A stretch of DNA of 64,000 bases from Bacillus sp. AFS059628 (GTDB lineage: Bacteria; Bacillota; Bacilli; Bacillales; Bacillaceae_G): contig NZ_NVEC01000023.1 in assembly GCF_002571225.1 (NCBI RefSeq), positions 13,896 through 77,895 on the forward strand. The letters run 5' to 3'. A program made the translations under genes and the position numbers. The notes under the pieces were generated by a model. The model was given only the letters and a program-made list of their open reading frames with translations, searched no databases and was not told the origin of the DNA. The stretch's first letter is position 1, and every line of letters begins with the position of its first letter. Of the stretch, positions 33,755-37,397 are shown piece by piece.

Positions 33755-34009
33755 ATGTTAAAAAAGCTTTGACATTTTGTCTTATGTCTTTTCTTTGTTT
33801 CTATTCTTTACCCCATGCCCATCAACTTAAGAATTTTATAATGCCCTAAAACAAAAAAATGTACATTTTTATCTTGTGTGTTAATCTTCTCGTCTTGGAG
33901 TATTTGCTTTCCTTAGCTTGCTGGTGATAGATCTGTACTCCTGGTAGAAAAGTATTTTTTTACTTATAATGGAATATATAACTTAATCAATTAACAAGGA
34001 GAATGGAAT

Positions 34010-34426
34010 ATGATACAAAGTATTAACCATATTTGTTTTTCAGTTGCAAATCTAGAGAAAGCTATTGAGTTTTATCAAAATATACTTCAAGCAAAATTAT
34101 TAGTAAAAGGTAGAAAGTTAGCTTATTTTGATTTAAATGGTTTATGGATTGCTCTAAATGTGGAAGAAAGTATACCAAGAAACGAAATTCAGTACTCTTA
34201 CACACATATAGCTTTCACTGTAACAAATAATGAGTTTGATTCTTTAAAAGAAATATTAATTCAAAATCAGGTTAATATCTTACCTGGACGAGAAAGAGAT
34301 GACCGAGATAAACGGTCTATTTATTTTACAGATCCAGATGGTCACAAGTTTGAGTTTCATACTGGTACTTTACAAGATCGTTTACAATATTATAAAGAAG
34401 ATAAAAAGCATATGACTTTTTACTGA
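34010..34426 (+). CDS. fosB: metallothiol transferase FosB (fosfomycin resistance)
   Basis: The product has 138 residues in the glyoxalase/VOC fold. The metal ligands of FosB are all in place: H7 (SINHICFS), H66 (SYTHIAFT) and E115 (HKFEFHTG). The long signatures GRKLAYF, PRNEI, GRERDDRD, IYFTDPDGHKFEFHTGTLQDRL and KKHMTFY are those of FosB. The enzyme opens the fosfomycin epoxide with bacillithiol. ATG has AAGGAG upstream. The gene is passenger cargo between the left end and the transposase of a mobile cassette. Confidence 0.95.
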   Translation: MIQSINHICFSVANLEKAIEFYQNILQAKLLVKGRKLAYFDLNGLWIALNVEESIPRNEIQYSYTHIAFTVTNNEFDSLKEILIQNQVNILPGRERDDRDKRSIYFTDPDGHKFEFHTGTLQDRLQYYKEDKKHMTFY

Positions 34427-34539
34427 TTAAAAAAACTAGTAAAATACTAGCTTTTCACACTTCTGATAATGAAGATTATGTAAATGTATAAAAGTAACAG
34501 AAATAATGATTAAACAGATATATAAGGTACTAATATATC

Positions 34540-34562
34540 GCTATAAAACTAGGGTTTTGCAC
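34540..34562 (+). repeat. vestigial internal IS231 left end
   Basis: ATCGCTAT near 34537-34544 followed by TTTTGCACTATCC lines up with the left end of the IS231-type copy at 61299 (ATCGCTATCAA, TTTTGCACTACC). It lies between fosB and the transposase and is degenerate. Confidence 0.45.
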
Positions 34563-34577
34563 TATCCATAAAGCCAA

Positions 34578-34624
34578 AAAGACGTTATCCTTTCTGTAGA
34601 ATTATAGGAAAGGATGGCGTCTTT
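34578..34624 (+). promoter_or_regulatory. stem-loop hiding the transposase ribosome site
   Basis: AAAGACGTTATCCTTTC (34578-34594) pairs with GAAAGGATGGCGTCTTT (34608-34624). The stem contains the GGAAAGG site of the transposase, a known device in IS231 that prevents translation of messages started outside the element. The same structure precedes the copies at 61401 and 51840. Confidence 0.7.
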
Positions 34625-34625
34625 T

Positions 34626-36062
34626 ATGAATCTTTTGATTCAAGATGAGTTACAATCATTTGCGAAAGAATTACAGCGATATGTTACACCTGTATTTCTA
34701 GAAGAACTTGCAAGAGAAATCGGATTTATAAAGCGAAAACGTAAGTTTTCTGGCTCAGACTTAGCTACGATTTGTATTTGGATTAGTCAACGAGTAGCAA
34801 GTGAACCCTTAGTACGATTATGTAGTAGGCTTCATGCAACCACTGGTACTTTACTCAGCCCTGAGGGCTTAAATAAACGTTTAAATGCGAAAGCAGTTTT
34901 GTTTTTACAACATATTTTTTCTTTACTATTACAACAAAAAGTATGTGAACAAACACAAATCTCTAACCATCTCTTCTCTTATTTTCAACGAATCCGTATT
35001 CTAGATGCTACTGTATTTCAGGTGCCAAATGCTTTAGAGGATGTATATCCAGGCTCTGGAGGCTGTGCGCAAACAGCCGGAATCAAAATTCAATTAGAAT
35101 ATGATTTGCACAGTGGGGAATTTCTTAACTTTCAAGTTGGACCAGGAAAAAATAATGACAAAACATTTGGCACGGAGTGCTTAGATACCTTGCGACCAGG
35201 GGATTTATGTATTCGTGATTTAGGTTATTTTTCATTGGAAGACTTAGATCAAATGGATCAACGAGGTACATATTATATTTCTCGTTTAAAATTAAATACA
35301 AATGTATATATGAAAAATCCAAACCCCGAATACTTTAAAAATGGCGCTATTAAGAAACAATCGGAATACATACAAATTGATGTAAAACAGATTTTGAAAC
35401 AACTACACCCTGGAGAAATATTTGAATTAAAACAGGCTTATATCGGTGATAAACAACAACTGTTTGCACGTGTTATTTTTCACCGATTAACAGAAAAACA
35501 ACTTCAAAAGCGACGAGAAAGGATCGCGGAAAAAGAAAAATCAAAAAATAGAACGTACTCAGAGAAAAGTAAAATGATAGCGGGATTAAACGTGTACGTG
35601 ACGAATATACCCTGGGAATGGGTTCCGATGGAACAAGTACATGAGTTATATACTTTACGTTGGCAAATAGAGATTGTCTTTAAAACATGGAAATCACTCT
35701 TCAAAATAGACCATTATCGTAATGTAAAACAAGAACGATTAGAGTGCCAACTATATGGAAAGCTAATCGCTATTTTCCTATGTTCCTCTACAATGTTTAA
35801 AATGCGTCAACTTCTTTTACAAAAGAAGAAAAAAGAGTTAAGTGAATATAAAGCGATTGGTATGATTCAGGATCATCTATCTCTTTTGTATCAAGCCATA
35901 CAGAGAAACACCCATGAAATAACAAAGGTCCTAATCCGCCTGTTCCACCTCCTACAGAAGAATGGGCACAAATCTCACAGATATGAGAAGAAGACTGTCT
36001 TTGATATCATGGGTGTTGTCTATGAGTATAGTGGATATAGAAAACAAAAGAAAGTTGCATAA
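34626..36062 (+). CDS. IS4-family transposase (IS231 type), apparently intact
   Basis: The product has 478 residues from ATG 34626, the usual IS231 length; the in-frame ATG 34614 overlaps the Shine-Dalgarno and is less likely. DDE residues are visible: D in RILDATVFQVPN, D in CIRDLGYFSL, and the YREK signature YTLRWQIEIVFKTWK with its Glu. The C-terminal half is helical and ends GYRKQKKVA. With intact ends and an exact target duplication this element may still be mobile. Expression is probably limited by the upstream stem-loop. Confidence 0.92.
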   Translation: MNLLIQDELQSFAKELQRYVTPVFLEELAREIGFIKRKRKFSGSDLATICIWISQRVASEPLVRLCSRLHATTGTLLSPEGLNKRLNAKAVLFLQHIFSLLLQQKVCEQTQISNHLFSYFQRIRILDATVFQVPNALEDVYPGSGGCAQTAGIKIQLEYDLHSGEFLNFQVGPGKNNDKTFGTECLDTLRPGDLCIRDLGYFSLEDLDQMDQRGTYYISRLKLNTNVYMKNPNPEYFKNGAIKKQSEYIQIDVKQILKQLHPGEIFELKQAYIGDKQQLFARVIFHRLTEKQLQKRRERIAEKEKSKNRTYSEKSKMIAGLNVYVTNIPWEWVPMEQVHELYTLRWQIEIVFKTWKSLFKIDHYRNVKQERLECQLYGKLIAIFLCSSTMFKMRQLLLQKKKKELSEYKAIGMIQDHLSLLYQAIQRNTHEITKVLIRLFHLLQKNGHKSHRYEKKTVFDIMGVVYEYSGYRKQKKVA

Positions 36063-37397
36063 TTTAAAAAATGAAACCCGTTAGGGTTTATTTGGGATGC
36101 TTATTTTTAAGAGTATGCTTTTATTTTAGGAATGTTTTGATCCGATGAGCCGAAAGCTCAAGTTGTGCTTACTCTTAAGTTGATGGGCATGATTCTTTAC
36201 CCACACATGCTGAAATCGGAACTGGCAGGATGAGACGATATATTTCTTAATGTTTGATAGATTTAACAATGGTGATTCTAAAAATGATCAGAATATTAAT
36301 GTTCTTGATCCATTTAGTTTTCAAGGAAGGATTTTCAGGGGATTATTGATAAATTAGATTACCTAAAAGACCTTGGTTTTACCACATTAATGCGTACCCT
36401 ATCTTTAAAAATGATTATAAGGGGCATGATGGATATAGAATCACAGATTTTATAAAACGAATGAGCATTTTTGATCAATAAAAGAGTTTAAAAAACTAGT
36501 TGATGAGTCACATAAAAGAAATTTAAAAATCATCATTGATTTTCCTACGAATCAAGTGAGTGCAGAAAATCCTTTAGTTAATGAACCAAATAAGAAGGAT
36601 TGGTTTAAAGAGGAATCTGCAGAACATGTTTTTGCAATGGGTCAAACAAATCCTGACGTAAATCAATATAAATTGATACTGCAAAATGGCGGATAACAAA
36701 AATAAATATAGATGGATATTTAACGATTAATCGATCGATGAAACCTGTGCTTGCTATTAAAGAAGATTAAAAACAATCTAAATTCCATAGTAATGGGAGC
36801 CTTTTTCAATAAGCATTATATGAAAAGATATACAAGAGATATGGTTAATAATAATGAATTTTCAGGTGAACGATGGAAATTAGCGTTAACTTATTTATAT
36901 ACTCAAGAAGAAATACCAATTGTCTATTATGGTTCTGAAATTGCAATTGATGGTGGCAATGTTCCTGATAATCAAAAGATGATGAATTTCAGAACGGAAA
37001 AAATGGATTTATTATATAAAAAGGAAATATGGAGATGATAAAAATATTGTCGTAATTAACAATACAAACCAAACATAGGTTGTTAAACTAACAACAGATC
37101 AAGTAAATAATATAGAAGAATCTAGAGGTTTATTAAATGGTGGGGGTGTTCGTGCATGCCCATCAACCTAAGATTTTAAGATACCCCATAACGAAAATTT
37201 CACCTTTTTACAGTTATTTATGAGAATTCGGCTCATTTTTTTGTTTTGGAGAACAACCAATTTTTTAAATTGATAGAGATGCATTATAGAATTTGGTTGG
37301 TGTCAAATCAATCCATTTGGATGGGGACAGAAAGTAATTTCTGTTTTATGTTGATTAATGAATGAAACTTAAAACTTTAATTAAGAGGGGGAGAATT

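What the first reader, a model, noticed from the sequence alone, without database searches (positions are those of the whole stretch)
33803..36202. FosB on an apparently intact IS231/MIC231-type element with exact 11-bp target duplication
Both ends match at 19 of 20 positions, the flanks repeat ATTCTTTACCC, the transposase has all catalytic residues, and FosB keeps H7, H66 and E115. This is a potentially mobile fosfomycin-resistance unit.
Basis: partly seen in the sequence, partly recalled or inferred. Interest (0 to 1): 0.7.

Follow-up and report, generated by a model that had tools for sequence, protein, structure and literature searches.

The report
Fosfomycin-resistance gene inside IS231 transposon
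A fosfomycin-resistance gene sits inside what looks like a complete bacterial jumping gene of a known kind (IS231), and its decayed inner ends hint at how such elements pick up passenger genes.

Summary
Window 33814-36191 (2378 bp) has 20-bp ends identical at 19 of 20 positions and an exact 11-bp duplication. It carries intact FosB and an intact 478-aa IS231-subgroup transposase. It is a passenger-carrying IS231, not a MIC. IS231 elements with passenger genes, resistance genes among them, are already reported (PMC2266710, passages).

Past movement is supported by a second site: the left 671 bp (left end plus fosB, 98.7%) starts exactly at the inverted repeat beside different DNA in CP079755.1. 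That record is labelled Klebsiella but looks like Bacillus DNA, and it lacks the right end.

Beyond the finding: a second passenger-type element with its own 11-bp duplication lies at 37155-38570; the fosB unit's left 116 bp resembles a miniature IS231; and a decayed IS231 left end sits just upstream of the transposase. Near-perfect outer ends with decayed inner ends fit a miniature-gene-IS231 composite that fused into one unit.

Transposition and resistance are untested. No named B. cereus-group genome appeared among the hits, so the whole unit was seen only here.

The parts
33803..33813 (.). left copy of the 11-bp target duplication ATTCTTTACCC
33814..33833 (+). outer left inverted repeat (20 bp, 25.8 bits)
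33814..33929 (.). 116-bp left module resembling a miniature IS231; its inner end 33910-33929 (minus strand) is decayed (16.3 bits)
34010..34426 (+). fosB, 138 aa, bacillithiol transferase of the B. cereus type
34536..34555 (+). decayed inner left end of the IS231 part, at the place where other IS231 copies carry their left end (best match 13/20; 8.6-8.8 bits)
34577..34625 (+). hairpin immediately before the transposase start, covering its likely ribosome-binding sequence
   Evidence: -32 kcal/mol, z -7.08; consensus over ten IS231 copies
34626..36062 (+). IS231-subgroup transposase, 478 aa, D127 D198 E349 with YREK signature
36172..36191 (-). outer right inverted repeat (20 bp, 24.1 bits)
36192..36202 (.). 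right copy of the 11-bp target duplication
37155..38570 (+). second IS231-type element (1416 bp) with exact duplication GGGTGTTCGTG, an ACT-domain ORF (37398-37775) and a broken 3' part of a transposase

Best explanation
A passenger-carrying IS231 transposon (IS4 family, DDE). Shown here: two near-identical outer ends, an exact 11-bp target duplication, intact FosB, intact transposase, and the passenger lying between left end and transposase. Inferred from the family: the transposase binds the two outer 20-bp ends, cuts out the whole 2378-bp unit and pastes it into a GGG/CCC-edged target, duplicating 11 bp. Also inferred: fosB is expressed from its own upstream sequence (TATAAT-like box at 33965-33970 and AAGGAG at 33996-34001, by eye), and the hairpin before the transposase start keeps transposase translation low on read-through mRNA. 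FosB itself would inactivate fosfomycin by adding bacillithiol (established for the family).
For: Ends and duplication (0 of 30 shuffles). Families. Catalytic residues. Passenger-less relatives L125, L127 and L091 align to element bases 1-23/24 and then jump to base 743, so the passenger is a clean block. Transposase dN/dS 0.082 against L125 and 0.147 against the window copy at 61401 (dS above 2, so rough). Left end plus fosB beside different DNA in CP079755.1, with only 2 synonymous differences in 414 nt of fosB. Eight of eight duplications of the IS231-type elements counted start GGG after orientation, this one included. Hairpin z -7.08, consensus of 15 pairs over ten copies, 4 with two-sided changes.
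Against: No complete second copy was found in the collections searched. The CP079755.1 copy is cut off after 671 bp and has no right end within 3 mismatches. The promoter scan found 6 sites against 11.5 expected and none upstream of fosB on its strand. Low dN/dS of transposases reflects long-term selection, not activity of this copy.
Confidence: 0.85

Rival explanations
1. Immobile fossil: a passenger-carrying IS231 that inserted once and has since been inherited with the chromosome; fosB is in practice an ordinary chromosomal resistance gene of the B. cereus group.
For: Chromosomal fosB is reported in a B. thuringiensis strain (PMC10067926, passages). Both inner ends are decayed, so the structure is not very recent. 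The neighbouring element 37155-38570 is broken. No complete second copy found.
Against: The duplication is still exact and both genes are open; left end plus fosB lies beside different flanking DNA in CP079755.1.
Confidence: 0.3
2. The left 116 bp is not a separate miniature element but the ordinary extended left end of long IS231 elements, which is known to be conserved beyond the terminal repeat; the inner inverted end at 33910-33929 is then a by-product of an internal palindrome.
For: PMC2266710 (passages) states that IS231 left ends are conserved beyond the TIRs. Several other left ends share the first about 46 bp without any detected inner partner (L117, L130). Only 1 of 6 distinct two-ended copies outside the window and CP079755.1 has a duplication of at least 10/11.
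Against: L141 is a lone 119-bp two-ended copy with a 10/11 duplication. In L128 such a copy forms the right boundary of a 541-bp unit with an exact duplication. Passenger-less IS231 copies share only 23-24 bp at the left with this element before the transposase block.
Confidence: 0.4
3. MIC-like unit that depends on transposase supplied by other IS231 copies, the encoded transposase being inactive.
For: Another full-length IS231 transposase frame lies in the window at 61401-62834.
Against: The unit's own transposase is full length with DDE and YREK and shows low dN/dS. The copy at 61401 lacks the regular YREK pattern.
Confidence: 0.07

Closest known systems
IS231 subgroup of the IS4 family, including members with passenger genes (De Palmenaer et al. 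2008, PMC2266710; matching passages read)
   Same: Ends starting CAT, 10-12 bp duplications, size within 1450-5400 bp, single-ORF DDE/YREK transposase, extra DNA between left end and transposase; resistance passengers mentioned (results not shown).
   Different: Here the passenger is identified as fosB, and remnants of two inner ends are visible. Whether a fosB-bearing element was already catalogued (for example in De Palmenaer et al. 2004, not held) could not be checked.
MIC231 mobile insertion cassettes (PMC1196294, passages)
   Same: Same type of ends with a passenger inside.
   Different: A MIC is trans-activated by an IS231 transposase; this unit carries its own.
[quoted passage not shown] abstract and outline read)
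   Same: Miniature two-ended elements that can mobilise the DNA next to them and form composite-like units (shown there by experiment).
   Different: Different transposon family and duplication length; here only inferred, and the other boundary is a complete IS231.
FosB bacillithiol transferases (NF000098; solved FosB 2 structures 5f6q, 4ir0)
   Same: Full-length match; H7, H66 and E115 present.
   Different: Nothing notable in the protein; the setting is what differs.

Membership tests
IS231 subgroup, IS4 family | DDE transposase in a single ORF with Y-(2)-R-(3)-E-(6)-K signature | tested here: met
   definition from PMC2266710 passages
IS231 subgroup, IS4 family | Ends fitting CAT-------AA--TAA--- and related to other IS231 ends | tested here: met
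IS231 subgroup, IS4 family | Target duplication of 10-12 bp | tested here: met
   11 bp exact
IS231 subgroup, IS4 family | Size 1450-5400 bp | tested here: met
   2378 bp
IS231 subgroup, IS4 family | Transposition activity (cut-and-paste) | not testable with these tools
   needs an assay
MIC231 (mobile insertion cassette) | No transposase of its own, moved in trans | tested here: not met
   intact transposase encoded within the ends
Miniature IS231 (MITE-like) as left boundary | Two inverted IS231-type ends about 90-130 bp apart | tested here: met
   inner end decayed (16.3 bits)
Miniature IS231 (MITE-like) as left boundary | Copies that move alone, with their own target duplication | tested here: inconclusive
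   1 of 6 distinct copies outside the window and CP079755.1 (L141, 10/11); the lone window copy 58697-58817 shows none
FosB | Full-length family match above curated cut-off with metal ligands H7, H66, E115 | tested here: met
FosB | Confers fosfomycin resistance | not testable with these tools
   needs susceptibility test

The most novel reading that the evidence does not exclude
IS231 acquires passenger genes by a composite route: a miniature IS231 lands on one side of a gene and a complete IS231 on the other; the outermost ends then transpose as one unit and the two inner ends decay. The fosB unit still shows both decayed inner ends, so it records how a resistance gene became part of a single transposon.
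Probability: 0.4. Interest if true: 0.5.

Novelty: new member of a known kind. Interest (0 to 1): 0.38.

Why it matters
fosB in the B. cereus group is generally regarded as a chromosomal trait (own knowledge; one example). Here it is packaged as what looks like a self-mobile unit. The remnants of inner ends give a concrete, checkable account of how an insertion sequence turns into a gene-carrying transposon. The Klebsiella-labelled record is also a warning: its fosB should not be read as transfer into Enterobacteria before contamination or mislabelling is excluded.

Tried and rejected
Own-genome copies could not be searched: no whole genome is held for the window. None of these 80 loci has an IS231-type end of 20 bits or more. 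A family search reached 19 genomes; all 19 gave partial matches, none covering the whole element. The phage collection gave no match. Plasmids gave 2 records in near mode and 73 in distant mode, none covering 80%. Viral contigs held 3 distant FosB relatives at 62-66%.

One search screened the 529 loci then held (largely fetched by patterns for these very ends, so not an unbiased sample) and listed 18 rows. I dropped L200 and L401 as chance because they lack the shared inner CCCC...GGGG repeat, and merged rows of the same place or same sequence (L082, L118 with L001; L142, L146 with L141; L143, L147, L151 with L139; L123 with L128; L206 with L409), leaving 6 distinct copies besides the fosB unit of CP079755.1.

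Results against a simple picture: L090 and L091 are full IS231-type copies without an adequate duplication, and L093, L111 and L112 gave none by the same test. The transposase copy at 61401-62834 has a left end (61310) but no right end reaching 12 bits. L150 looked like an intermediate (outer left end, two passenger ORFs, intact inner left end) but its transposase is truncated and no right end was found in the 6.3 kb read, so it is only suggestive. Its outer left end has no detected inner partner, so it is not a miniature. The DNA following fosB in CP079755.1 was not explained. The 13-base sequence before the left end there (AGGGGTCACCATA) also precedes the miniature in L132; unexplained, perhaps target preference.

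Full report
Observation. At 33814-36191 the window carries a 2378-bp segment bounded by inverted repeats (19 of 20 positions) and flanked by the exact direct repeat ATTCTTTACCC. Inverted pairs of at least 18/20 with a duplication of at least 10/11 and 0.5-4 kb apart number 2 in the window and 0 in each of 30 single-base shuffles. The other pair is a second element, 37155-38570, with the exact duplication GGGTGTTCGTG.

Genes. FosB (34010-34426) scores 321.8 bits against NF000098 (cut-off 295); the nearest solved chains are FosB 2 (5f6q, 4ir0). H7, H66, E115 and R124 are present. The transposase scores 347.4 bits against the IS4-family model NF033592 (cut-off 115) and matches the Pfam DDE domain. 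It has D127, D198 and a YREK signature from Y342. Comparison with other IS231 transposases puts its start at 34626, giving 478 aa. dN/dS is 0.082 against L125 (354 of 478 identical) and 0.147 against the copy at 61401 (271 of 478); dS exceeds 2 in both, so these are rough.

Architecture. Passenger-less relatives L125, L127 and L091 align to bases 1-23 or 1-24 of the element and then jump to base 743. The passenger block is thus about 33837-34555, between left end and transposase. That is the layout described for IS231 in PMC2266710 (matching passages read), which mentions resistance, virulence and metabolism passengers as results not shown. The 2004 paper on modular IS231-MIC231 elements and the 1999 MIC231 paper are not held, so I cannot say whether a fosB-bearing element was already listed. 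Nine paper searches showed no title or abstract start describing one; of these, one search listed 20 of 69 papers, 20 of 23 and 10 of 143. I read passages of PMC2266710, PMC6542083, PMC1196294, PMC10067926 and PMC11835882 and the abstract and outline of PMC4133298.

Inner ends. Just upstream of the transposase, where other IS231 copies carry their left end, 34536-34555 matches the best of those ends at 13 of 20. Its matrix score is 8.6, while the 30 neighbouring offsets score -8.6 or lower. In the whole window 34 of 127,962 positions score as high, and 102 of 63,981 plus-strand positions match some end at 13 or more of 20, so the claim rests on the predicted place rather than on the score alone. 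On the left, 33814-33929 is a two-ended 116-bp module whose inner end is decayed (16.3 bits, against 25.8 for the outer end). The window holds three such pairs (33814, 37155, 58697) against none in 20 block shuffles. Six distinct further copies were seen in viral contigs; one (L141) has a 10/11 duplication. In L128 a 541-bp unit with an exact duplication has such a copy as its right boundary. Intact outer ends with decayed inner ends are what a fused composite would leave; this origin is inference.

Second site. In CP079755.1 (labelled Klebsiella grimontii plasmid pNY3A) the first 671 bp of the element recur at 98.7% identity, starting exactly at the inverted repeat and preceded by different DNA. 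fosB there differs by 2 synonymous changes in 414 nt. No right end with up to 3 mismatches was found in that record, so that copy is incomplete. Stretches of the record are 31-33% G+C and it carries gshAB and several IS231-type transposase matches. I infer Bacillus DNA in a mislabelled or mixed assembly, not transfer to Klebsiella; this was not proven.

Target choice. The duplications of eight IS231-type elements (two in the window; L095, L125, L127, L128, L141 and the L129/L131 pair) all start GGG after orientation; 677 of 63,990 window 11-mers start GGG or end CCC. L141 (10/11) shares its sequence with L125, so seven are distinct. Only copies with a duplication could enter this count.

Expression. 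A hairpin (-32 kcal/mol, z -7.08) precedes the transposase start and has a 15-pair consensus over ten IS231 copies, 4 pairs with two-sided changes and some pairs broken in single copies. By inference it damps translation on read-through mRNA, for example from fosB. The promoter scan found fewer sites than shuffles and none upstream of fosB on its strand; the TATAAT-like box at 33965-33970 and AAGGAG at 33996-34001 are read by eye.

Setting. By eye from separate translations, the fosB unit lies at the start of a decayed gene and the second element near what may be its end. A middle piece (36751-37035) resembles cyclomaltodextrinase or maltodextrin glucosidase, below the curated cut-offs. The window is probably B. 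cereus-group chromosome; this is inferred from the IS231 elements and the FosB type.

Verdict. A real, structurally intact, passenger-carrying IS231 bearing fosB: a member of a known kind, possibly already catalogued. The trace of a miniature-plus-IS231 composite origin is the part a specialist might not expect.

Noticed in passing
window 37155-38570: Second IS231-type element with exact 11-bp duplication, an ACT-domain passenger ORF and a broken transposase remnant, about 1 kb downstream of the fosB unit and apparently in the same decayed gene.
   Followed up: yes
window 49526, 50593, 51756-52533, 58697-58817, 61310-62834: Further IS231 traces: a solo right end (49526), a weak left end (50593), a left end with 5' transposase fragment (51756), a lone two-ended 121-bp miniature (58697) and a full-length transposase frame without a detected right end (61310).
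   Followed up: partly
CP079755.1 (L001, L090, L530): A record labelled Klebsiella grimontii plasmid is 31-33% G+C in the stretches read and carries gshAB, IS231-type transposases and B. cereus-type fosB; probably Bacillus DNA.
   Followed up: partly
L150 170-1971: Outer IS231-type left end, a membrane-protein ORF and a Crp-like regulator ORF (names by eye), an intact inner left end and a truncated transposase: a possible capture intermediate without right end.
   Followed up: partly
window 16086-17288, 45260-46045, 55103-55756: Other resistance-type genes: MGT-family glycosyltransferase, ANT(9) aminoglycoside nucleotidyltransferase and type A chloramphenicol acetyltransferase, each above its model's curated cut-off.
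   Followed up: partly
window 24828-25521 and 31271-31825: Two split IS6-like transposase frames on the minus strand; the piece 31271-31522 matches the IS6 model below its cut-off, the others are by resemblance only.
   Followed up: no
window 953-12813: Apparent pilus and sortase gene cluster between two similar AraC-like regulators (read from the translations, not searched).
   Followed up: no
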